The notes: generated by a model not told the origin, from the letters alone. Numbered from the stretch's first letter, positions 52,081 through 63,942 are shown. The stretch is DNA of 64,000 nucleotides from Candidatus Avelusimicrobium pullarium (GCA_944323745.1 CALUTQ010000002.1:434001-498000); one strand, 5' to 3'. A program made the numbers and translations.

Positions 52081-53124
52081 ATGAAAAAAAATCTTTTCAA
52101 TGTCACGCTTTTAGCTGTATTTTTGTGCGGCAATACATTTGCATTTGCACAAAACAATCTTTCCGCTTTTTTGCCTTTGCTGCAAGCTCCTGCCCGCACA
52201 GCGGCCCAAAACCAGCAGGTTTTAAATCTTTTTGCTTCGTCCAAAGACCCCAATACCGTCTTTGCCGCAGGCGCCAGCCTGGTGCGCATTCCTCCTTCTT
52301 CGGCGCAGGAAGCCAAATTGCTTAATATCATCATCAAAGATGACAATATGCTTAAAAAGGTGTTTGCGGCCGTTATTTTGACCTCTATGGGCAGTATGCA
52401 CGCGGAATTGTCCTCCCTGCTGCAGGATGCCGTTTCCAGCCAAGATCACGCCGTACGCGCCTATGCGGCCAGCGCCTATACGATTTTAAACCCGCAGGAC
52501 AAAAACCATACCGAAGAAATTATTAATTTGTATATTTACGACCCCGCTTTTGCCCAACGCGCAATGAACCTGCTTGCCGATAATGAAAAAGACACCCTGA
52601 ACTATTTAAAAGACGCTTCCAAATCTGCAGACGGCCAGGTGCGGGCCGCCGCGGCCGAGTGGCTGGGCGACTTGCAAACCCAAAACGCCGCCAAACAATT
52701 GTTAAAAATGGCAAAAACGGAACAAGATCAGCAGGCCATTTCTGCCATTGCTTCGGCCTTAGCCAAAAATAAACAATGGACCTTGCAAGACACCGTAAAA
52801 GGCCTTAAAACGCGCTATACGCAGCCGCAGGCCGCCACCTATGCATTGGCCCTCGGGTTTATGACAGGAAGCGCCATAGAGCCCGTTAAACAGGGCTTGG
52901 CGGACGACAATATCAACATCCGTATCAATGCCGCACGCGCCGCCGCTTATATGGCCGGTGTACTGGCCAGCACGGACGCCGGTTTGTATACCGATGACAA
53001 AGCCTTTGATATCACGCTGTTAAAGGGGCTTATCCCCCAATTAAACGCAATGGCCAGACGGGATAAATCTTCCGTTCAGGCTTATGCGGAAAACGCTTTA
53101 AAACAAATAGCCAAATTAATGTAA
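52081..53124 (+). CDS. Exported HEAT-like repeat protein
   Basis: 347 residues. Signal peptide (about 22 residues, FAFAQ). The remainder is a helical solenoid: VRAYAASAYTILNP, VRAAAAEWLGDLQTQNAAKQ, INIRINAARAAAYMAGVLAS and a final VQAYAENALKQIAKLM are HEAT-type pairs. Likely a protein-binding scaffold in the periplasm. TATAAT (52069-52074) ends 6 nt before the ATG. The gap AAGGAT also looks like a ribosome site, but a promoter this close leaves no room for a leader. dut follows 4 nt after the stop. Confidence 0.8.
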   Translation: MKKNLFNVTLLAVFLCGNTFAFAQNNLSAFLPLLQAPARTAAQNQQVLNLFASSKDPNTVFAAGASLVRIPPSSAQEAKLLNIIIKDDNMLKKVFAAVILTSMGSMHAELSSLLQDAVSSQDHAVRAYAASAYTILNPQDKNHTEEIINLYIYDPAFAQRAMNLLADNEKDTLNYLKDASKSADGQVRAAAAEWLGDLQTQNAAKQLLKMAKTEQDQQAISAIASALAKNKQWTLQDTVKGLKTRYTQPQAATYALALGFMTGSAIEPVKQGLADDNINIRINAARAAAYMAGVLASTDAGLYTDDKAFDITLLKGLIPQLNAMARRDKSSVQAYAENALKQIAKLM

Positions 53125-53128
53125 TTTT

Positions 53129-53545
53129 ATGAAAGTTAAAAAACTACATCCCGACGCTTTACTGCCCCAGCGGGCTCACGCCACCGATTCCGGCGCCGAT
53201 TTGTTTGCGCTGCAGCGCACGGAGCTTTCGCCGCGCGCCATTACCCACGTACACACGGGTATTGCGGTGGAATTGCCGGAGGGAACTTCCGGCATTATTT
53301 GGGGCAAAAGTTCCGTAGAAAGCAAGGGCATAAAAGCAATGGCCGGCTTGGTGGACGCCCCTTACCGCGGAGAGCTGATTGTGTGTATGTATAATTTAAA
53401 CGATACACCCTTTATTTTTGAAAAAGGCCAAAAAGTGGCACAACTGGTTGTTTTGCCTACGCTTTATCCGGAATTTGAAGAAGTGAAGGAACTTTCCGGC
53501 ACGAGCCGCGGAACAGGCGGTTTTGGCAGCACGGGCAGCAAATAA
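53129..53545 (+). CDS. dut: Dut: dUTP diphosphatase
   Basis: 138 residues. All trimeric dUTPase motifs are visible: HATDSGADLFAL (I), WGKSSVESKG (II), GLVDAPYRGEL (III), KGQKVAQLVV (IV) and SRGTGGFGSTG (V). It converts dUTP to dUMP, preventing uracil incorporation. Placed 4 nt after the HEAT-like gene, so it is likely co-transcribed from the promoter at 52069. Confidence 0.97.
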   Translation: MKVKKLHPDALLPQRAHATDSGADLFALQRTELSPRAITHVHTGIAVELPEGTSGIIWGKSSVESKGIKAMAGLVDAPYRGELIVCMYNLNDTPFIFEKGQKVAQLVVLPTLYPEFEEVKELSGTSRGTGGFGSTGSK

Positions 53546-53596: not shown

Positions 53597-53627
53597 ACTT
53601 TAAACAATACACCTATAAAAAACCCCT

Positions 53628-53652
53628 CAGTTTTGCTGAGGGGTTTTGTGTG
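53628..53652 (-). terminator. Terminator of the six-gene membrane-protein operon
   Basis: ACCCCTCAG / CTGAGGGGT hairpin with, on the minus strand, a T6 tract, immediately past the stop of the last operon gene. Confidence 0.85.
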
Positions 53653-56600
53653 TTACCAAATAGACGAGTAAGTATCTTTTTTGAAACGAGTATTGCACTT
53701 TATGTTATTTCCGTTGCTGGGCTTTATATCGTCTATGTCAACGGAGCACAAGGCCTTAATATAAGCCTGCACATCCTCGTACGCTATCGTTCCGCCCAAG
53801 CCGCAAGAACCGGAAGGCTGGAAAACATTTTTGTATTTCTCGTGGTACTTGTTTCTGTTGTACGAATCCAAGGTCCTATTGGTAGATATTTTACCCATCG
53901 TGTCCTCATCCCAGGCTTCAGCACGCTGGAACTTAACCTCGCTGGCTATTGCCTTGAGCGGGAAGTCTTTCCAAACCCCAGCAGCCAAGACGGCTTCAAA
54001 AGGCTGGCGATCCGTTTGGATAGACGCCAAGTCTCCCAGCTTTTGATAGTTCCAGTTATAGTGACCATAGTGGTATTTCTTGTTCTGCTTGACTTCTGCT
54101 CCGCCATCGCAGCCGTAGAAACGCTTATCCAGAACCGTCTTGCCGTTTTCCTTTTTATACAGCGCAGGGAAGAACGAAGAATCAGGGCCTACAAAGGCGG
54201 CAAAAGTACCAAACATATTATTGCCGTTCTCACCGTCTTTAGAGTTGGCGCCAATCGTCTTACCCAAGGCACACGCGGCATTTAACGCAAGCTCGCCTTT
54301 TACGATACTCATTGCATCCAGCAAGTTGGCTACCGTAATAGAATCTTCATCATATTGCAAGCTGTTGTTTTTGTCTTTGTTGGCCGCATTATACTTCTCT
54401 TGAGCGGATTTAAGCAGTGCCCTTACATCATCATCCACCGCCACCAACCGCTTGTTTTCTATATCCTTGAGCGAGGGGCAGACGCCAAAAGCCGGCATGT
54501 TCGGCGCAGGCGTTTGCGCTAAACGAGCATTCACATCCAACAGTTCCGTATCATCTTGCGGAATAAACGGAATGCTGTTAAAGAAGCTCACCGTTTGAAA
54601 CGCAGGAGTCTGCTTGCCTTGCGGGCAATTCGGATCCGTTTTGACATAAGAGCCCCACGTTCCATTCTGTTGGCAAGTTCTCTGAATCTCGCATTTATCG
54701 CCGTCAACAGACGTTTCCGTTGCTCCAGGCGAGCACTGCGTCTGGGTGCTGGGCACCTGTTCCACCACATATTCGCCCAAATATTCCTCGGAGTCCATAG
54801 AAAGCTGGTCGCCGAAGCTCGCTTTCCACTTAGCGGTAATTCCGCCCGCCTCTGCGGCTTTAACCAACGCCTGGCGTTGGGAATCACTGAGCGGTTTAAA
54901 CTCATAAGTAGCCGTAGCCTGACCGCCGGCACTTTGGACGTTTCCGTCGTGTTTTACAGGGACGCCGACAATGCCTGCTTCCGGAATATCCAGCGTTACC
55001 TTAATATTGCCGGCCGTTTTACCGTGCACCTCCGGATCAAAGGTCAACGTGGCAGCAATGCTTTCCGGCGAATCAATCACCAAGGCCGTAATACGGAAAT
55101 TAGAGAAAGAACACGCCGTTCTGATGGCATTTTCTTTTCCGTCATTGGCCATTGCCGTTCTGCTGGAGCCGTCAACTCCGCGGACCGTACCGGCATAGCG
55201 GCGGGTTTTGTCTTTAAATTTCTCCGTATCTTTAGACAAATTGCCTTTGCGCAAAACATAATATGTTTCAAAGTCAGCATACGTGATGGGCAATACGTCC
55301 ACCGGCATATTCTTGACCTTGACCTGATTATGCTCCGCGTCTTCAGACAGATTTTTACCCTTGGAAAGCTTATTCTTCATTGCATAGCCTTCAATAAAGT
55401 ACAAATGCAAGGCGCTAAAAGCTTCTTCGGGGGAAACTTCCTGCCCGTCTTTGGTCAAACCCAAGCCGCTCAGTACATTCATCGTCTTGGCTTTAAAGTC
55501 CATCCAGTCAAACACACTGCTTTCCGCCACATAAATTACACAAGAATCATTAACGTCGTTGCGCTGCAAGTCATCGTAAAGACCTCCGGCGTAACTGCTT
55601 CTTGCTTTTTTCGTCGCATCAAACTGTCTGACGTCGGATTCACCGCCATTGGCTTTCTCACCGGCGGCAACACTTTGTTTGTTGGGGTTCTTTTTGCCAA
55701 TGCCGCACAAATAATGAGAGCCGTTGTTGTCAAACGGAACGTAGTTTTTGACAACCACTGCAATATACTTATTCCATTTCCCCGCTTTGCCATTGGCCTG
55801 CAGTTCAAAATTGCGGGTAGTGTCAACTGCTTGGCAGTTAAAGCGGTCTCTTAACTGAGCAGGCCCCCGTGAGGCAAGTCCGTTTCCAAACACGCCATTG
55901 CTTAAGCAGTCAATACGGGCGGCAATAGGCCCTAAGTTTTGCCCGCCTTCTTTGCCTTCTTTCCACGGGTCTTGTATGCCGTCTTTCACTTTATAGCCAT
56001 AGAAAGCGCGGCACTGGTCTTTATTGAAAGGAATAGTAGGATAAGCCACTTTCCAATCAGCTTCTTCCAAACCACCGCACTCAGCCGGTTTTCCATAGCC
56101 TTCTCTTACACCCAAGAAGCGCCCTGCCGTGCAGTCATCGGTGCCCATCACTACGCAGCAGCCAAGGTTTGTTGCTGCCGTAGCCAAGGCTTGAATAAGC
56201 GGCTCTACCAGGTTTTTTCTCCACAGGAAGTATTTCCATTCCCAGGCTTTCTGCGAGCGTTCCTTCATCATATCCCACCACCAAGGAGTCATACCTTTGT
56301 AGTCAATGACGTGTTCCATCTTGCCCGCTCCGCTACCGGGAGCAAACTCACCCGTGCCGATACCGCCGAGGCGGCCGGTTTCCACCGGTTTGAACATAGC
56401 GTCGCGCAGCGCTTGTGCGGCATTTGCTTTGCTTAAGGCATCGCGGGACGCACGTGCCTGAGCGGCACTGCCCTGCCCAAAATAAGAACGGGACGGCGTA
56501 TCCGCCGCGCGCAACGGCTGCAAAGACACCGGTTTGGTGCCTTGTCTGGGCCCGCCGGAAGAATCTTCTCTGGCGGCCGCTTTCAGGTTAGCCCCGCCGA

Positions 56601-57186
56601 AACGGCCAAAACCGGCACCGCCGCCGCTGGCACGCGTCATAGACGCAGAGCCCAGCTCGTTAATCTTGGTGGCTTGGCGCTGGAAAGCCGCGCGGGTGGC
56701 AGGGGGTACCGTTTGACGATAATCGGAAGCAGGCGGGGTATAGGTGTCTTCCAACCCGTCTCTGCTGCTGAAGTCTTCATACGGCGGCAAAACGTCTGCT
56801 TCCTCCTCCTCATCGCTTCCCCAGCCTTTAATCAAGCTAAACGGATCACGCCCCGTTAACTGGGCGATTTGTCCGTTCGGATCCTCCACGCTGGGTTCAT
56901 ACCCAAAGCGTTCGGGGTCGAAAATAGTGTCCTCTGAACCGGGAGGAATGATGGGTTCCTCATTCATACTGCCGCTGTACTTGTACAGGAACGGAAGCAT
57001 CAGCAAAGCGGCGGCGGCAGCCACAAAGAAAGGCGCGTCACGCTTGGTGCGTTCAAACAACGTCTTTTTGGGCTTGCCGTTGCTGCCGATTTTGGAGGAA
57101 ACACGCTTAGAGAACGGATTAAAAGCAGGCTTGCTGTTTTTAATCTTATCGCTAAACGTGAATGAATCCTTTTTATTCTCAGGCAT
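53653..57186 (-). CDS. Large membrane-anchored protein, operon gene 6
   Basis: 1177 residues. Cytosolic basic N terminus, one membrane helix (about 50-70, FFVAAAAALLMLPFLYKYSG), then an acidic/Pro-rich stretch (GSDEEEEADVLPPYEDF) and a Ser/Gly/Ala-rich region with INELGSASMTRASGGGAGF and LGGIGTGEF. The remaining 850 residues are periplasmic and contain many spaced cysteines, suggesting disulfides (CCVVMGTDDC, CEIQRTCQQNGTW, GSCGLGG). No family recognised. The motifs RASG and ALRDAM...LGGI recur in the products at 59097 and 60612, so these are probably parts of one assembly. Confidence 0.75.
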   Translation of the reverse strand: MPENKKDSFTFSDKIKNSKPAFNPFSKRVSSKIGSNGKPKKTLFERTKRDAPFFVAAAAALLMLPFLYKYSGSMNEEPIIPPGSEDTIFDPERFGYEPSVEDPNGQIAQLTGRDPFSLIKGWGSDEEEEADVLPPYEDFSSRDGLEDTYTPPASDYRQTVPPATRAAFQRQATKINELGSASMTRASGGGAGFGRFGGANLKAAAREDSSGGPRQGTKPVSLQPLRAADTPSRSYFGQGSAAQARASRDALSKANAAQALRDAMFKPVETGRLGGIGTGEFAPGSGAGKMEHVIDYKGMTPWWWDMMKERSQKAWEWKYFLWRKNLVEPLIQALATAATNLGCCVVMGTDDCTAGRFLGVREGYGKPAECGGLEEADWKVAYPTIPFNKDQCRAFYGYKVKDGIQDPWKEGKEGGQNLGPIAARIDCLSNGVFGNGLASRGPAQLRDRFNCQAVDTTRNFELQANGKAGKWNKYIAVVVKNYVPFDNNGSHYLCGIGKKNPNKQSVAAGEKANGGESDVRQFDATKKARSSYAGGLYDDLQRNDVNDSCVIYVAESSVFDWMDFKAKTMNVLSGLGLTKDGQEVSPEEAFSALHLYFIEGYAMKNKLSKGKNLSEDAEHNQVKVKNMPVDVLPITYADFETYYVLRKGNLSKDTEKFKDKTRRYAGTVRGVDGSSRTAMANDGKENAIRTACSFSNFRITALVIDSPESIAATLTFDPEVHGKTAGNIKVTLDIPEAGIVGVPVKHDGNVQSAGGQATATYEFKPLSDSQRQALVKAAEAGGITAKWKASFGDQLSMDSEEYLGEYVVEQVPSTQTQCSPGATETSVDGDKCEIQRTCQQNGTWGSYVKTDPNCPQGKQTPAFQTVSFFNSIPFIPQDDTELLDVNARLAQTPAPNMPAFGVCPSLKDIENKRLVAVDDDVRALLKSAQEKYNAANKDKNNSLQYDEDSITVANLLDAMSIVKGELALNAACALGKTIGANSKDGENGNNMFGTFAAFVGPDSSFFPALYKKENGKTVLDKRFYGCDGGAEVKQNKKYHYGHYNWNYQKLGDLASIQTDRQPFEAVLAAGVWKDFPLKAIASEVKFQRAEAWDEDTMGKISTNRTLDSYNRNKYHEKYKNVFQPSGSCGLGGTIAYEDVQAYIKALCSVDIDDIKPSNGNNIKCNTRFKKDTYSSIW

Positions 57187-57288
57187 AACAGCCTCCTGTA
57201 AATTTCACGTCTATTGGCCGGCAAACATCACCGGGTACTGCCAAGACCTTAACGGCCGCTCGGACACGTCAAGGCCGGATACTGCCTA

Positions 57289-58806
57289 CTACATAGAAAG
57301 CCAACTGGTGTTTGCTTCTGTCACCGGGAAGAAATCGTTGCTTCCGGCTCCTTCGCCGCTGCTATCGCTTACATTAAAACTATTAAAAACTTCTTCGTCT
57401 GTCAACCCGTCTATCACTTCGTCGCGGGCGGCTTCCAAGGCGGCAATTTCTTCTTCCGTGGCGCCCGCAGCCTGCGCTTGGGCCAATGCGTCACAGGCGG
57501 CTTCCAAATCACTGGCATAAGAATCAAGACGCACGGTTTCGCAACGCCCTTCGCTGACTAGCTTTACCCCGCAAGCCATTTTCATATTGCCGAAAATTTC
57601 TTTTACGTCACGGCAATTGGTTTGCACTTTAATTAAATCTTCTTTCCACGTCTGTATGCCGTCCCCGCAGGAACGGGGCACCGACCCGCGTATTTGCTGC
57701 ACCAACCCCTTTGCTTCATCCAATTTAGGGGCTAAATTGCTGTTGGCCTCTGTCGTCAAATCACGGCATTGTTGTTCCGTAAGCAATTGTTGGTTGACGT
57801 CTTCAAAATCGCCAATCGTTTCATCCCCTGTCAGGCCAATGCCTGTCCCTGCACCGGACGAATCATACACTTTTTTGGGTATTTCCATTGCCATATATCC
57901 GGCCGAGGCCAACTGCTTTTTTAACATTAAATACTGCGCTCTGTTGGCGGCTTTGGAAAGCAGCCACACGGTGGCCAGGTCCCGCTGGGGTTTGTCCCCC
58001 GCGGTCAAAGAGCCAGACAAATTGCTCAGCGGCGAGGGAATTTGAGAGGCATCTTTCAAGGCCCCGTCCAACTGGCTGTTGGTCAGCAAAGAAGCTTTAT
58101 CCACGGCCAGCCCCAACCAATCTACCGACGCAGCTCCTGCAATATTGCCCGACTTGACCAGCCAAGCCGTATTAGAGGAGCCTTTTACCGTTATGTCTTC
58201 TGCAGCGGCACGGACGGCTACATCGGCATCTGTACCAAAATAAACTTCTTCGGCATTTTTGGCTGCCGTTGCCGCTTTGGCCGCCTGACTCCATCCGTTA
58301 ACCGTGCCATTGACGGCGGCACCGCCCTGCTGCTCGTTAGCACTGTAAGCCCCGTACAAACCGTCCGGCGACAGACCCTTTGCGCGGCGGGCGGCATTCA
58401 CGGCACGTAAATCAAACAAGCCGGACTTTGGCCCCGACGCATTAAAACCCTGCGGTTGGTTTCTGTTAAAGAGCGAATATTCTTCGTTACCGTACCAACT
58501 ACCCGATAAATGACGGCGGTCCGCGTCGCCAGCCCACGTCAAGAGTGTACGGAAAAAACTCATAGACTGGGTGTCCTGCGCGCTAAACCCCATCAGCCAC
58601 GACAAATTACGAAGCACCGGTATATGACCCACCGGTATTATAAATATAACACAAAACAGGAAAAAAACAAGAGCCAGCCCAACCAGCAGACGCCGGCGGT
58701 TATGGCGTTTGTCTGCCTGCGTATTGGACGAAACCGGCTTAAGCTCCGGCTGTTTGTCCCCCGCTGCTGGCAAACGCACTATGGAATTGTTTTTTTCCTG
58801 TTTCAT
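57289..58806 (-). CDS. Membrane-anchored protein, operon gene 5
   Basis: 505 residues. Basic N terminus (DKRHNRRR), one membrane helix (about 38-60, LLVGLALVFFLFCVIFIIPV) and a large periplasmic part with paired cysteines near the C terminus (QQCRDL, RSCGDG, TNCRDV, MACGV, GRCET, EAACD). The Cys-rich region resembles none I know. It ends 102 nt before the next operon gene. A structural or adhesin-like role is possible but not supported by a domain. Confidence 0.72.
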   Translation of the reverse strand: MKQEKNNSIVRLPAAGDKQPELKPVSSNTQADKRHNRRRLLVGLALVFFLFCVIFIIPVGHIPVLRNLSWLMGFSAQDTQSMSFFRTLLTWAGDADRRHLSGSWYGNEEYSLFNRNQPQGFNASGPKSGLFDLRAVNAARRAKGLSPDGLYGAYSANEQQGGAAVNGTVNGWSQAAKAATAAKNAEEVYFGTDADVAVRAAAEDITVKGSSNTAWLVKSGNIAGAASVDWLGLAVDKASLLTNSQLDGALKDASQIPSPLSNLSGSLTAGDKPQRDLATVWLLSKAANRAQYLMLKKQLASAGYMAMEIPKKVYDSSGAGTGIGLTGDETIGDFEDVNQQLLTEQQCRDLTTEANSNLAPKLDEAKGLVQQIRGSVPRSCGDGIQTWKEDLIKVQTNCRDVKEIFGNMKMACGVKLVSEGRCETVRLDSYASDLEAACDALAQAQAAGATEEEIAALEAARDEVIDGLTDEEVFNSFNVSDSSGEGAGSNDFFPVTEANTSWLSM

Positions 58807-58815
58807 AAAACCTGC

Positions 58816-59100
58816 CTAATTAAGAACAGACGACTGCGCCTGACCGGCTACGCGCCCCTGATTGTACTCCCTGCGCAGTTTCTGTTCCTGCATTCTTTTT
58901 TCGTACTCTAACAGCCGTTGCTGTCGCTCACGCATAGATTGTTCCCGTGCTTTTAAATAAATCACTTCTCTCTGCGCGCGACGATACTGGCTATTAAAAT
59001 GCACATAAGCGACTATCCCGCTTGTAATAATAATGAGCAATATAGCCCACGCAAAAACTCTTTTTAATAAGATGTCTACCTGTGCCATAGGCTGCCTCAT
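58816..59100 (-). CDS. Small membrane protein with a coiled coil, operon gene 4
   Basis: 94 residues. One membrane helix (about 13-32, VFAWAILLIIITSGIVAYVH) followed by a charged helix (QREVIYLKAREQSMRERQQR) likely to form a coiled coil. The layout recalls FtsL/FtsB- or PilN-type assembly proteins, but no family motif is present. The ATG at 59100 overlaps the previous stop (ATGA); a second ATG at 59088 has GAGG at good spacing and may be the real start. Confidence 0.7.
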   Translation of the reverse strand: MRQPMAQVDILLKRVFAWAILLIIITSGIVAYVHFNSQYRRAQREVIYLKAREQSMRERQQRLLEYEKRMQEQKLRREYNQGRVAGQAQSSVLN

Positions 59101-60596
59101 TTATTATCCAGAGTACCCGTTTCATCATTTGATGCGGCAATACTCTTGCCGGAGTCCACTGCCCCTTTAACGATACCGCCCACGGCAGCCATTCCGGTGG
59201 TCACCACAGCCGCTCTTACTCCCATACCCAGCCAAGAGAAGACTTTGGCATAGATTTTGGCAAGCCAATTGGTAACTGTGGGGCTAAACATAGCCAAAGA
59301 TACACCGGTAGCAAACAATGCACCGCCGCCGATAAACGCCCAAGCGTCCCCTGGCCAGCCGTATTTATCAGCATAGCGGAAAGCATCCACCAAATACAAG
59401 GCGATGACCGCCAGCATAACACCGCCCAAAATGTATGCAGCCGCCGTCGCCCACGGCCAAGGTACTTTTTTCAAAGCCGCAATGGTCAGCATCGCAGCAA
59501 CGGTAGTAAACAACAGAGAAATCAAATTGGTTGCCAAACGATCTCTATGGGCTTTGCGTTCCTGCTCGGTGGTATCTATTTCCTCTACGGCTTGCCCGAG
59601 TGCGGCTTCCTGCCCTTGAAGCTTATCTTCAAAAGAAGCATCACTGCTGCCGGCAAATTCATTGGCGGTTTCACCCACCACTTGAATTCCGCCGGACAGT
59701 TTTTCCTTGGCCATAAAGGGGCTGGCCCCTTCGTTGGCAGCACGGTCTTTATTAGCCGCTACCTTGGAAGACGCCAACGCAATGTCGCGCAGACTGCGCC
59801 CTTCTTTAGAGTTACTCCCTTGTCCGATACGCGTGCGGGTATTGCCGGCTATAAAAGAAGAAGACGAAGATGCCGCGCCGCGTATATTGCCGTTAGACGC
59901 CAGTAACGTGCTACCTTTGGGCATAGCCCCGCTTAACGTGTAACCATCCGACGTACCCAAAGCCGAAGCGCGGGACGCAGCAGCGCTTTGACCGGAACGG
60001 GAAGAAGAAGTGCCGCCAAATCCCCCGCTGCTGGAAGAACCCATATTGCTGCCGCTGGCTTTGGCAATAGACGCGCGTTGCAGCCCGCCGGGTTTTTCTT
60101 CGCCCAATTTATTAATTTGCGTTTTTTGCGCTTGCTGGGCTGCTGCTGCCCCTACGGCAGATCCGTCGGCAGACACATTGCCCGTTAAGGGCTTGCCGTC
60201 CGGCCCTACTTGCGCCGCGGCATTGGCCCCCATCCCCAGGCCGGCTTCGCCGGAACCCAAGGCATAGCTGGGCACGGAAATGTTGTTTAATGCATTCACC
60301 GCTCCTTCCCCGCCGTCAAACAAGGTGCCTTCTTTTGCCGCAATTTCTTCTGCCGTGGCAAACTGAACATTGCCCGTATCAAAATTAATACCGGAATATT
60401 CAGCCGGCAAAGCACCGCCCGTTGACATAATAGAGCTTAAAGAGCGAATTTGTTGCTCTTGAGCCGCAGGGGTATTGGAGGCGAAGTTATAGACGTTAAA
60501 GCCAATCAACCCCACCGTTACCGCCATACCGGCCGTTCTGCCCGCGCTGACACTGATAGCGCCAATACGGCTGGTTAAGAATTTTAATATCCGCAT
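59097..60596 (-). CDS. Membrane-anchored Ser/Gly/Ala-rich protein, operon gene 3
   Basis: 499 residues. The N-terminal segment (MRILKFLTSRIGAISVSAGR) leads into a membrane helix; four or so more hydrophobic helices lie at about 360-470. The Ser/Gly-rich middle carries QINKLGEEKPGGLQRASIAK and, near residue 295, NEGASPFMAKEKLSGGIQVV. Both stretches have counterparts in operon genes 2 and 6. No known domain. Overlaps the next gene by 4 nt. Confidence 0.75.
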   Translation of the reverse strand: MRILKFLTSRIGAISVSAGRTAGMAVTVGLIGFNVYNFASNTPAAQEQQIRSLSSIMSTGGALPAEYSGINFDTGNVQFATAEEIAAKEGTLFDGGEGAVNALNNISVPSYALGSGEAGLGMGANAAAQVGPDGKPLTGNVSADGSAVGAAAAQQAQKTQINKLGEEKPGGLQRASIAKASGSNMGSSSSGGFGGTSSSRSGQSAAASRASALGTSDGYTLSGAMPKGSTLLASNGNIRGAASSSSSFIAGNTRTRIGQGSNSKEGRSLRDIALASSKVAANKDRAANEGASPFMAKEKLSGGIQVVGETANEFAGSSDASFEDKLQGQEAALGQAVEEIDTTEQERKAHRDRLATNLISLLFTTVAAMLTIAALKKVPWPWATAAAYILGGVMLAVIALYLVDAFRYADKYGWPGDAWAFIGGGALFATGVSLAMFSPTVTNWLAKIYAKVFSWLGMGVRAAVVTTGMAAVGGIVKGAVDSGKSIAASNDETGTLDNK

Positions 60597-60611
60597 ATTG
60601 GTCTCCTTATT

Positions 60612-62090
60612 TTATTCTCCATAGTGAGATTTCAAATCGCCTTCATAAAAAGTTTTGCCCCAAACAGAGTTTTTGAACTCCTCTTTTTCTTCTTCCGTAG
60701 GCTGCGTCCAGTTTTTATCAGAGAAAGCACCCGGCACCCCCCAATAACGCACGCTGAATCTTTCGGTAAAATCTTTGGGACCGCCCGGGATGGCAATATT
60801 TCTAAATGCCGTTCTTACAACAGATTCAGAAAGATTGGCAAAGCTTCCCACGGTATTCTTCGTTTCGTAATCAGATTCACCCCAGGAATCTCTAAAAGAT
60901 TCCACTTTATTAAGCATCTTTTTCTTGGCTCTGAGTTGCGCTAAATACCCTACCACGTTAATACCCCAGATCCAACTCCACGTGTTGCATTTTTTTACAA
61001 ACTCTCTTAAATCACGCCGAAGTTCTTCTTTTGCTTCTTCGTAGGTAACCACTTCTGCGCCGGTTTGATTCAGGCTGTCACCCAAAGCGGAAATGGCGTC
61101 ATCCGTAAAATCGCTGGAGCTGGCCGCACCGCCGGCAAGGGCTTCCCCGCCGTCCAAGCGAATGCCGCCCGATAAGCGGGTGCTGGCCATAAAGGCACGG
61201 GCGCCTTCGTTAGCGGAACGATTGCTGTGACGGGAAATTTCAACCGACTGTTTCTGCAAGGTTTCCAGCGAGTTGTCCCCTCTCATCCGGTTCCCTTGCC
61301 CGATAACCGAGCCTCTGCTCCCGTCAAATTTAGCTACTTGCGTAGCAGCCCCTAAGGCAGAAGGAACTGCGGCCTGCGCACCCCCCAATACGCCGGAAGA
61401 ACTGACACCTTGCCCTTCGCGTGCATACTGACCGCTTTGCAGCGGCGTAGAATTTAAATTGTTTCCGGAGGCGCGGGCCATTCCTTCGGCCATACCAAAC
61501 TGGCCGCCGCCCTGGCCTTTCATAGCGGCTGCCACTTTGGCGGCATTTCCGGTTCCGTCTGCCGTCGCAGCGGCCTCGGCGGCTTGTTTCTGAGCCGCAA
61601 TAGAAGCCTGAATGTCCGCAATTTGTTTTTGCACCGCACTCATATCACCCGACATTGCGCCGCCCATTTCTTTGGCCACATTGCCGCCCATACCCAAACC
61701 GCCGGAAGCACCGTCCATTTTATAGGCGCTTATATTCTGCTCCTGCTGGACAAAAGCAGCCCCCTCTGCAATCTGTTGGGCAGATTGAGCATCAGCCTGC
61801 ATTAATTGCAAATCTTTGGAAAGCGTGGTCTTAATACCGGAATGAATCTCTCCGCCTTCGCCATAAGAACCGCTGCCATAAACACCGCCTGCGGCGCCGG
61901 CTACAAAGACTACATCCTGATCCGCCGCATTGGAAGAAAAAACCGTATTTAAATTCGGCTGGGAAGAAGACCCCATCATCTGCCAAGCGGCAATGCCGGC
62001 CACCCCTACGGCGGCGGACAGTCCTACTGCCTGCATAGCAGACAAGGACCATTTACCTGCCTTGTTTTTTAAGAATTGAATAATTTTCAT
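60612..62090 (-). CDS. Membrane-anchored Gly/Ala-rich protein, operon gene 2
   Basis: 492 residues. N terminus MKIIQFLKNKAGKWSLSAMQ is alignable with operon gene 3 and followed by a membrane helix. A long Ala/Gln-rich stretch (KQIADIQASIAAQKQAAEAA) is probably coiled coil. Near residue 300 it has NEGARAFMASTRLSGGIRLD, the same motif at the same distance as in operon gene 3, so the two are paralogues. The C-terminal 130 residues are charged and Trp-containing. No family recognised. Confidence 0.75.
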   Translation of the reverse strand: MKIIQFLKNKAGKWSLSAMQAVGLSAAVGVAGIAAWQMMGSSSQPNLNTVFSSNAADQDVVFVAGAAGGVYGSGSYGEGGEIHSGIKTTLSKDLQLMQADAQSAQQIAEGAAFVQQEQNISAYKMDGASGGLGMGGNVAKEMGGAMSGDMSAVQKQIADIQASIAAQKQAAEAAATADGTGNAAKVAAAMKGQGGGQFGMAEGMARASGNNLNSTPLQSGQYAREGQGVSSSGVLGGAQAAVPSALGAATQVAKFDGSRGSVIGQGNRMRGDNSLETLQKQSVEISRHSNRSANEGARAFMASTRLSGGIRLDGGEALAGGAASSSDFTDDAISALGDSLNQTGAEVVTYEEAKEELRRDLREFVKKCNTWSWIWGINVVGYLAQLRAKKKMLNKVESFRDSWGESDYETKNTVGSFANLSESVVRTAFRNIAIPGGPKDFTERFSVRYWGVPGAFSDKNWTQPTEEEKEEFKNSVWGKTFYEGDLKSHYGE

Positions 62091-62217
62091 AAAGTGCTCC
62101 TGTCTTTTATTATTCCGTTGCTAATCTCCAACTACACCTGCTTGTACGTTAAATGTCATTTTCGTAATGGGTTCCATATTTACGCGGTAGGGCAGAGAAC
62201 GCAGTCCACAAAACCGC

Positions 62218-63801
62218 TCAGCCGCCATTGCCGCCACCGCCGTTATAACCGCCGTAGCCGTTATAACCGCCGTAACCGTTATAACCGCCGTAACCGTTAT
62301 AACCGACATACCCTCCATAGCCGTTATATCCGTTATAACCTCCATAGTTGTTAAACCCGTTTCTTACGTTGTTTTTAGCCTGCCGCTTGGCCGCACTCCA
62401 CTGATCGGGATGTGCATCTTTTCTGTCTCTTACAAATTCCTTATAACTCATATCCTTATAAGTGTTATTAAATTGTGTTACTGCGTCTTGCCCGGGTTGC
62501 CCTAATTGGAGCGTCTTGCCTGTTTCTGTACTGTTAACCGTTTGTCCGTTACAAGAATAGGAAAAACCTTTGCCATCCGCAGCAGGCGTTTTAGTAATGC
62601 CGGCTACATCTAACTGCTCAGCAGTTAACTTATCCAAATTGGCAGCAGAAATTTTTCCACCCTCCTCCATAGGCACCATTCGGTTGTTCCAATCATTGGC
62701 AATCTGTCCTTCAAAGATAGCATTGGCTTGCGCGTTGCTTTTCATTGCATCATTAATCGCATTGCCCGCCCATTGTTTTAACAAATTCATCCCCAAATCC
62801 AAGGCTTTAGTTGCAAATTGCTCCAACAAAACTTTCCACAGACTTTTTTTATCTTCTTCTTTGGCTTCTTCTTCTCCCTCTTTCTGGGCTTCCTTCAAAG
62901 CATCATCAAAAGCACCGGTATCTACGCTGCTGACGGGGGCATTTGTATCCAAATTCAAACCGGACGCTTTGCTTAAGTCCACGGCACCGCTGTCATCCAG
63001 AAAGGCCTCGCTGCCTTTTACATTGCCGCCCATCATCGCTTTTTTGGCATTTAACAGTTTGTTGTCCTTCAAGCCTGCTGCGGCACGGCTGCCGGTAGCC
63101 GCTTGGAACAGTGCCTTGCGGGCATCGCCCGAACCGGGGCCTTGCGGAGTAAAACGGTCACTGCCTTTTTCCTGACTTTTAAAATTGGAAAAATCGCCGC
63201 TGGGACCGAACGTGCCGCTAATGCCGCTGCCGCTGCCGCTTTTTAAGCTGGCGCTGTTTAAACTGTTTACCTGCGTAGGCGTAACGGTTCTGTTGCTGCC
63301 TACGCCGCCGTAATAGCGGCCGGGAACGTATTGCGATGCGGTAGAAGAGGCCGAAGTGTCAAGCTCGGCGGCCGCCGCTTCAGCATCTTCTGCCTGGCGG
63401 GCTTCTTTTTCCTCTTTCGTATACAAGCCGCCCGATTTGGCATTTTGCATATCCGGATATTTGGAAGCCAGCAAATATTGTTCGGCTTCATCGGAAGAAA
63501 AGGGCATATTGGCCAAGTCGTATCCGCGCGTCTGCAAATCGGCAAAAGCATCTTCCCCGCCGGAGGAAGCCGCCGTGGCAAACATCACCAAAGCCACCAA
63601 AATCACCACGGCAATGGCGCCAAAGGTGTAGGCCTGTTTACGATCCATTTTGTTTAATTTGGCCCACGTTTTGCTCAAAGCGGCAAAGGGGGCGGGTTTC
63701 TTATTCTGCCCCGTTTGCCCGACGGCTGCGGCTGCCGGCTTTTTTTCTTCATTATTCTGTTTGCCGGAGCGGACTTTGCTTTTATTAAACAGGTTAAACA
63801 T
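62218..63801 (-). CDS. Membrane-anchored protein with YNGYGG repeats, operon gene 1
   Basis: 527 residues. Basic cytosolic start, one membrane helix (about 58-80, AYTFGAIAVVILVALVMFAT), a Ser/Gly-rich middle with ARKALFQAATGSRAAAGLKD, a helical region (KSLWKVLLEQFATKALDLGM) and a C-terminal run of YNGYGG-type units ending GGGGNGG. The C-terminal repeats suggest an exposed flexible tail. AAAGGGG lies before the ATG. It is the promoter-proximal gene of the operon. Confidence 0.75.
   Translation of the reverse strand: MFNLFNKSKVRSGKQNNEEKKPAAAAVGQTGQNKKPAPFAALSKTWAKLNKMDRKQAYTFGAIAVVILVALVMFATAASSGGEDAFADLQTRGYDLANMPFSSDEAEQYLLASKYPDMQNAKSGGLYTKEEKEARQAEDAEAAAAELDTSASSTASQYVPGRYYGGVGSNRTVTPTQVNSLNSASLKSGSGSGISGTFGPSGDFSNFKSQEKGSDRFTPQGPGSGDARKALFQAATGSRAAAGLKDNKLLNAKKAMMGGNVKGSEAFLDDSGAVDLSKASGLNLDTNAPVSSVDTGAFDDALKEAQKEGEEEAKEEDKKSLWKVLLEQFATKALDLGMNLLKQWAGNAINDAMKSNAQANAIFEGQIANDWNNRMVPMEEGGKISAANLDKLTAEQLDVAGITKTPAADGKGFSYSCNGQTVNSTETGKTLQLGQPGQDAVTQFNNTYKDMSYKEFVRDRKDAHPDQWSAAKRQAKNNVRNGFNNYGGYNGYNGYGGYVGYNGYGGYNGYGGYNGYGGYNGGGGNGG
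62227..62345 (-). repeat. Tandem YNGYGG-coding repeats
   Basis: Repeating units of TATAACGGTTACGGCGGT type encode the Tyr/Gly/Asn-rich C terminus of operon gene 1; about six near-identical units. Such tracts can expand or contract. Confidence 0.85.
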
Positions 63802-63913
63802 AATATAACCCCTTTATTTAGATATAAAAATTCACTCTTGCTGACCCGTATAATAACTTCTTATACGCTCAAACACAGAGTTTAAATTTTGCGCGCGGCA
63901 TTGCGCTACTATT

Positions 63914-63942
63914 AGTATAAACGGTTTTAGTGCCTTTGTCAA
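63914..63942 (-). promoter_or_regulatory. Near-consensus promoter of the six-gene operon
   Basis: On the minus strand TTGACA (63942-63937), 17-bp spacer, TATACT (63919-63914). Predicted start near 63907 gives a leader of about 105 nt before the ATG at 63801, longer than for most genes here. Confidence 0.8.

What the first reader, a model, noticed from the sequence alone, without database searches (positions are those of the whole stretch)
53653..63942. Six-gene operon of unfamiliar membrane-anchored proteins sharing motifs
Genes at 63801, 62090, 60596, 59100, 58806 and 57186 (all minus) follow a TTGACA-17-TATACT promoter and end at a terminator at 53628. Each has a single N-terminal membrane helix (gene 3 has more) and large Ser/Gly/Ala-rich or Cys-rich outside parts. 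Motifs recur: NEGAxxFMAxxxLSGGI near residue 300 in genes 2 and 3, a looser form in gene 6; RAS(G) after IN[KE]LG in genes 3 and 6. Genes 2 and 3 share N termini. This looks like one multi-protein envelope complex or secretion apparatus that I cannot match to a known system.
Basis: partly seen in the sequence, partly recalled or inferred. Interest (0 to 1): 0.7.

Follow-up and report, generated by a model that had tools for sequence, protein, structure and literature searches.

The report
Tad-pilus accessory operon with RNA leader
In gut bacteria of the family Elusimicrobiaceae, six genes for unfamiliar membrane-anchored proteins sit directly behind a complete Tad (sticky-pilus) gene cluster and are switched on from a promoter followed by a previously undescribed, folded RNA element that stays with these genes even where they have scattered around the chromosome.

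Summary
The six genes, promoter and terminator are real and at the stated positions. The 'unknown envelope system' is the downstream end of a Tad (type IVc) pilus locus that the window cut off: 195 bp upstream of gene 1, same strand, come TadE-like, TadG-like, Flp, TadC, TadB, a TadZ-TadA fusion, secretin, RcpC, TadE and Flp genes. The six proteins match no Pfam or NCBIfam family or PDB sequence. The set occurs only in Elusimicrobiaceae, whereas Tad is nearly phylum-wide. Genes 2 and 3 are paralogues with an invariant glycine in a prepilin-like N-terminus, but no Glu5. A short RAS-G motif is shared by genes 1, 3 and 6; the NEGA...SGG motif is only genes 2/3. Ten of 18 base pairs covary, no Rfam family matches, and 73 of 79 family genomes carry it against 0 of 215 others. 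It sits directly before gene 1, or before gene 6 where the operon has split (Elusimicrobium minutum), and it led blindly to the operon in a further genus. Best reading: a lineage-specific accessory module of the Tad pilus under a new cis-regulatory RNA.

The parts
63914..63942 (-). Promoter of the six-gene operon, TTGACA-17-TATACT
   Evidence: 11 of 12 consensus matches; identical in 9 of 9 loci of the genus and near-identical before other leader copies
63822..63884 (-). Structured RNA leader in the 5' UTR (models R1/R2); core stem-loop 63835-63880 followed by a conserved U run
   Evidence: 10 of 18 pairs covary, covariation score 0.482 against 0.191 in shuffles; core fold z -3.48; no Rfam match; 73 of 79 family genomes
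62218..63801 (-). Gene 1 (527 aa): cytoplasmic tail, one membrane helix (60-78), conserved D-L-A-x-[ML]-P-F...K-x-x-R-Q-x-x-D block, RAS-G motif, Gly/Tyr-rich tail in this genome
   Evidence: homologues in genera g1, g2, g3, g4
60612..62090 (-). Gene 2 (492 aa): paralogue of gene 3; prepilin-like N-terminus with invariant Gly; Ser/Gly/Ala-rich
59097..60596 (-). Gene 3 (499 aa): paralogue of gene 2 with extra C-terminal membrane helices (357-403)
58816..59100 (-). Gene 4 (94 aa): one membrane helix plus charged, coiled-coil-like part; overlaps gene 3 by 4 bases
   Evidence: (DivIC only below its cut-off); syntenic small ORFs in relatives
57289..58806 (-). Gene 5 (505 aa): one membrane helix (41-59), C-terminal helical Cys-containing domain with invariant Cys347, 380, 398, 412, 422
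53653..57186 (-). Gene 6 (1177 aa): conserved cytoplasmic tail (KKDSFTFSDKIK...), one membrane helix, PWWWDMMKER segment, large Cys-rich ectodomain with a predicted Ig-like domain at about 694-804
   Evidence: homologues in genera g1, g2, g3, g5
53618..53648 (-). Intrinsic terminator after gene 6 (CCCCTCAG...CTGAGGGG + T run)
   Evidence: sequence (approximate ends)

Best explanation
The operon is a lineage-specific accessory module of the Tad (type IVc) pilus of Elusimicrobiaceae. Shown: it lies directly downstream, on the same strand, of a complete Tad locus ending in TadG-like and TadE-like genes; its gene order is conserved; it has its own conserved promoter followed by a new, covarying structured RNA leader; and where the operon has been split in genus g3, both the g1-headed unit and g6 carry a leader and the genes are all retained. 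Inferred: the proteins are inserted in the inner membrane with large periplasmic or surface parts and work with the Tad machine. Genes 2/3, with an invariant Gly after a short basic leader, would be processed by the single prepilin peptidase and act as pseudopilin-like subunits; gene 6 (very large, Cys-rich, Ig-like domain) would be the scaffold or tip/adhesin part; genes 1, 4 and 5 would be partners. Also inferred: the RNA leader is a cis-regulatory element (attenuator, riboswitch or protein-binding site) that co-ordinates this module separately from the core pilus genes.
For: Upstream genes: RcpC/CpaB E 6e-29 (TIGR03177, above cut-off), secretin E 8e-43, TadA-type ATPase E 2e-99 fused to a TadZ-like ParA domain, two T2SSF platform genes, TadE E 7e-12 and a second TadE-like protein 195 bp before gene 1. 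RcpC-to-gene 6 distance 22-25 kb, same strand, in 28 of 31 one-contig genomes. Synteny g1-g6 across genera g1 and g2. In other Elusimicrobiales the slot after TadE also holds membrane-anchored Ser/Gly/Ala-rich proteins (genus g6 L076; family f2 L159 and L080). In the E. minutum-sized genome G034 the families g1, g2/3, g5 and g6 and a g4-like ORF persist at three separate loci, with a leader before g1 and before g6. Invariant Gly12 and Phe294 are the only invariant columns of 31 gene 2/3 proteins; one Peptidase_A24 gene in each of four genomes tested. Leader: covariation, family-wide distribution, position just before g1 or g6 in 35 of 36 distinct copies examined, blind prediction of the operon in genus g4.
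Against: Tad loci exist almost phylum-wide (237 of 294 genomes) without these genes, so the module is not needed for Tad as such. In E. minutum and several genus-g2 genomes the genes are unlinked from Tad, so part of the link rests on synteny in the other genera. Genes 2/3 lack Glu5 and give no Pfam class III signal match. Structure predictions are poor overall (pLDDT about 50). No ligand or mechanism for the leader is known; the U run starts a few bases after the stem, which is atypical for a terminator.
Confidence: 0.68

Rival explanations
1. The six genes encode an independent envelope complex (own secretion or surface assembly) that merely lies beside Tad; the leader RNA and promoter mark it as its own regulatory unit.
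For: Own promoter and leader; unlinked from Tad in E. minutum and some genus-g2 genomes; Tad without the module in most of the phylum.
Against: Same-strand adjacency kept in genus g1 and part of g2 and visible in g4; analogous proteins in the same slot after TadE in other Elusimicrobiales; no ATPase, channel or secretin of its own among the six genes.
Confidence: 0.24
2. The products are diverged members of known T2SS, T4P, T9SS or similar component families.
For: Gene 4 has sub-threshold hits to GspM (E 0.006) and DivIC (E 0.0025); genes 2/3 look like prepilins at the N-terminus.
Against: No hit above any curated cut-off for any product or for divergent homologues; no PDB sequence match for the gene 6 profile and only chance-level ones for the gene 2/3 profile.
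Confidence: 0.05
3. Within the Tad reading, the leader is only a passive 5' stabiliser or weak terminator hairpin, not a regulatory sensor.
For: It is a single stem-loop followed by a conserved U run and a nearby Shine-Dalgarno-like sequence.
Against: Invariant or near-invariant irregular positions (UUGAG / GGUCA) around a freely varying, covarying inner stem over several genera, and retention of a separate copy by each half of the split operon, go beyond what a passive hairpin needs.
Confidence: 0.3

Closest known systems
Tad/Flp (type IVc) pilus locus
   Same: Upstream genes carry the defining parts: Flp-like prepilins, TadE, TadG-like, RcpC/CpaB, secretin, TadZ+TadA ATPase, TadB and TadC platform, TPR protein; Tad systems in Elusimicrobia are already reported (PMC6668835).
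   Different: TadZ and TadA are fused in one ORF; a two-component/HAMP regulatory block sits inside the locus; six extra membrane-anchored proteins follow TadE under their own promoter and RNA leader.
Prepilins / pseudopilins (class III signal peptides)
   Same: Genes 2/3: short basic leader, invariant Gly, then a hydrophobic stretch.
   Different: No Glu at +5, no Pfam class III signal hit, very large Ser/Gly/Ala-rich bodies, and C-terminal membrane helices in gene 3.
Riboswitch / attenuator leaders in Rfam
   Same: Conserved bases in an irregular internal loop, covarying stem, position between promoter and start codon, U run after the stem.
   Different: No match to any of 4227 Rfam 15 families for three divergent copies; limited to one bacterial family and one gene set.

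Membership tests
Tad/Flp pilus locus (upstream cluster) | RcpC/CpaB | tested here: met
   TIGR03177 101 bits against cut-off 71; PF16976 55 bits against 28.8
Tad/Flp pilus locus (upstream cluster) | TadA ATPase, TadB/TadC platform, secretin | tested here: met
   T2SSE 211 bits, T2SSF twice, Secretin 146 bits; TadA family model TIGR03819 is the best NCBIfam hit, 333 bits, just under its cut-off 373
Tad/Flp pilus locus (upstream cluster) | Flp/TadE prepilins and a prepilin peptidase | tested here: met
   TadE PF07811 45.7 bits; Flp-like ORFs with GQxxIEY and sub-threshold class III signal hits; one Peptidase_A24 elsewhere in the genome
Core Tad components (the six proteins themselves) | Match to a Tad, Rcp or Flp family | tested here: not met
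   No such hit for any of the six
Prepilin/pseudopilin (genes 2 and 3) | Conserved Gly at the cleavage site after a basic leader | tested here: met
   Gly12 invariant in 31 sequences; basic residues before it in the alignment
Prepilin/pseudopilin (genes 2 and 3) | Glu at +5 | tested here: not met
   Absent in the alignment; some pseudopilins lack it (own knowledge), so this lowers but does not exclude the reading; not filed as a member
T2SS GspM or DivIC (gene 4) | Curated cut-off reached | tested here: not met
   16.2 bits against 60; 18.0 against 28.9
Known Rfam RNA families (leader) | Score above a family's gathering threshold | tested here: not met
   Best hits 13-20 bits, all far below gathering scores; none in the window besides two tRNAs
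Cis-regulatory structured RNA (general kind) | Covarying conserved structure between promoter and coding start, tied to one gene set | tested here: met
Riboswitch | Ligand-dependent change in expression | not testable with these tools
   needs in-line probing and reporter assays

The most novel reading that the evidence does not exclude
The leader is a new riboswitch-like or protein-sensing RNA class that forms a small RNA regulon: one signal sets the level of the Tad accessory module independently of the core pilus genes, and the split units in genus g3 (leader-g1-g2/3-g4 and leader-g6) stay co-ordinated because each kept a leader copy. The six proteins would then be a new kind of pilus-associated surface assembly.
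Probability: 0.4. Interest if true: 0.78.

Novelty: new variant of a known kind. Interest (0 to 1): 0.62.

Why it matters
It places several new protein families, conserved across a family of gut bacteria that very probably includes the cultured Elusimicrobium minutum, in the context of a known machine, the Tad pilus, and so makes their function testable. It also adds a strongly supported, undescribed structured RNA whose copies track the gene set through operon splitting and tandem duplication. That is a natural test that an RNA leader belongs to a function rather than to a chromosomal position, and the RNA can be used as a search tag, as it already was for genus g4. If the leader proves to sense a ligand, it would be a new riboswitch class with a surface-attachment output.

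Tried and rejected
Family and structure searches of the six products gave nothing usable: Pfam/NCBIfam, PDB sequences. AlphaFold2 models of gene 6 and gene 5 were low-confidence (only 10 and 8 sequences were allowed), and fold searches gave only a generic Ig-like match for gene 6 residues 694-804 (Z 8.7) and nothing for gene 5. By eye, the C-terminus of gene 6 in E. minutum looked OmpA-like; Pfam did not support this, so it was dropped. Profile-profile comparison found no overall homology between genes 1, 2/3, 5 and 6; a first shuffle test of shared motifs timed out and was replaced. The gene 1-6 models did not match the membrane-anchored proteins in the same slot of genus g6 or family f2, so those are called analogous, not homologous. 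Weak leader-model hits outside the family (E 0.002-0.05) look like chance. Literature: Tad in Elusimicrobia is reported (PMC6668835), but nothing on these genes or this RNA was found in the open library.

Full report
OBSERVATION. The six ORFs are present at the stated coordinates and closely spaced (127, 15, -4, 9 and 102 bases apart). The promoter TTGACA-17-TATACT is at 63942-63914, and a clean terminator follows gene 6 (sequence). Hydrophobicity gives one N-terminal helix in genes 1, 4, 5 and 6, a weaker one in gene 2, and extra helices in the last third of gene 3.

ORGANISM AND DISTRIBUTION. The window lies at G000:C2:434001-498000 in a 1.6-Mb genome. Its nearest named relatives are Candidatus Avelusimicrobium and uncultured Elusimicrobiales. 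Of 294 genomes sampled from the phylum, gene 6 occurs in 73, all of the window's own family, and the gene 2/3 family in 70, in two genera only at that sensitivity. Tad RcpC occurs in 237. Gene order g1-g2-g3-g4-g5-g6 is conserved through much of the genus, with small differences. In the sister genus g2 it is g1-g1'-g2/3-g4-g5-g6.

WHAT LIES NEXT TO IT. The window ends inside a much longer same-strand cluster. Directly upstream are a TadE-like gene (63997-64527 in extended window coordinates), a TadG-like gene, an Flp-like pilin, response-regulator and histidine-kinase genes, a thioredoxin-like protein, a HAMP protein, a TPR protein, TadC, TadB, a 760-aa TadZ-TadA fusion, a secretin, RcpC, TadE and two Flp-like pilins. 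This is a complete Tad pilus locus; the prepilin peptidase is elsewhere, one in each of four genomes tested. RcpC and gene 6 are 22-25 kb apart on the same strand in 28 of 31 genomes where both lie on one contig. In other Elusimicrobiales the place after TadE also holds membrane-anchored Ser/Gly/Ala-rich proteins, not detectably homologous.

THE PROTEINS. None matches a known family. Genes 2 and 3 are paralogues. Over 31 members only two columns are invariant: a Gly in a basic N-terminus followed by a hydrophobic stretch, as in prepilins but without Glu5, and a Phe near residue 294. Genes 1, 6 and some 2/3 members share a short motif near residues 140-190 (roughly T-x-[IV]-x-x-[LM]...S-[ML]...ASG) well above locally shuffled controls; the NEGA...SGG motif is confined to genes 2/3. 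Gene 6 has a strongly conserved cytoplasmic tail and a PWWWDMMKER segment; its model is poor except for an Ig-like region at 694-804. Gene 5 has five invariant cysteines.

THE RNA LEADER. Comparing upstream regions showed that the promoter is followed by a nearly invariant frame, ACTCTGTGTTTGAGCG-[variable stem]-CGGGTCAGCAAGAGT, then a U run. In 21 leaders of the genus the inner stem varies with compensation. A covariance model built on these found further copies. In 52 distinct sequences 10 of 18 pairs change on both sides, 96% of cells pair, and the covariation score is 0.482 against 0.191 +/- 0.010 in shuffles and at most 0.155 in slid controls. That alignment was fitted to the model and so leans towards it; the first one was not. 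The outer stem also covaries between genera (ACTCT/AGAGT, GCTCC/GGAGC). The core folds better than all 200 shuffles (z -3.48). Rfam has no match.

THE LEADER TRACKS THE GENES. A second model finds it in 73 of 79 Elusimicrobiaceae genomes and, above chance level, in none of 215 others; one convincing copy per genome in genus g1, one or two in g2 and two in g3. Of 36 distinct copies examined, 32 lie just before g1, three just before g6, and one is separated from g1 by a 136-aa ORF. In G034, whose size (1,643,562 bp) is that of E. minutum Pei191 (from memory), the operon is in pieces: leader-g6 at 646 kb, leader-g1-g2/3-g4 at 711 kb, g5 at 773 kb, Tad at 1.28-1.31 Mb. Where g1 is duplicated in genus g2, each copy has its own leader. 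In genus g4, where the gene 2/3 search had failed, the leader hit led to a g1 homologue (E 8e-37), a g2/3-like ORF, a small ORF and g5, right behind a TadE-like end.

MECHANISM. Shown: adjacency to Tad, conserved order, own promoter, structured leader, joint retention. Inferred: the proteins extend the Tad machine in the envelope, genes 2/3 as pseudopilin-like subunits and gene 6 as a large scaffold or adhesin; the leader adjusts expression of this module. Whether the leader senses a metabolite, a protein or only transcription or translation state is open. A GGDEF-type ORF lies further upstream (L064:10838-12337, read by eye), so a cyclic dinucleotide is a possible signal, but no known c-di-GMP riboswitch model matched.

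COMPARISON AND NOVELTY. The Tad locus is known, and Tad systems in Elusimicrobia have been reported (PMC6668835). The accessory families and the RNA are, as far as these libraries go, undescribed. I rate the whole as a new variant of a known kind.

Noticed in passing
window 63822-63884 (-): New covarying structured RNA leader, part of the answer but not of the finding as given; it tracks g1/g6 through operon splitting and duplication.
   Followed up: yes
L063:13945-16227 (-), just beyond the window: TadZ-like ParA/MinD domain and TadA secretion ATPase are fused in one 760-aa ORF; similar-sized ORFs with the same start recur in the related Elusimicrobiota Tad loci read here.
   Followed up: partly
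L064:5772-10589 and L063:18792-19760 (-): A 1605-aa secreted-looking protein and a 322-aa outer-membrane-like protein directly precede the Flp pilin genes; the 322-aa one recurs in relatives (L067, L068, L072) and has no Pfam match.
   Followed up: no
L063:7606-8565 (-): Thioredoxin-like protein with a C-P-F-G / C-P-Y-G motif inside the Tad locus, conserved in relatives, no Pfam match; possibly relevant to the Cys-rich gene 5/6 ectodomains.
   Followed up: no
L159:13428-14750 and L080:2409-3596: In family f2 the slot after TadE holds another membrane-anchored Ser/Gly-rich protein family (29% identical to each other over 129 aa), followed by a PDZ/protease-like gene.
   Followed up: partly
L136:1605-2015: A 136-aa ORF that by eye resembles a DUF559-type endonuclease-like protein sits between the leader and g1 in genome G181.
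   Followed up: no
window 52081-53545 (+): HEAT-repeat protein and dUTPase-like gene pair, convergent to the operon, conserved next to it in close relatives only.
   Followed up: no
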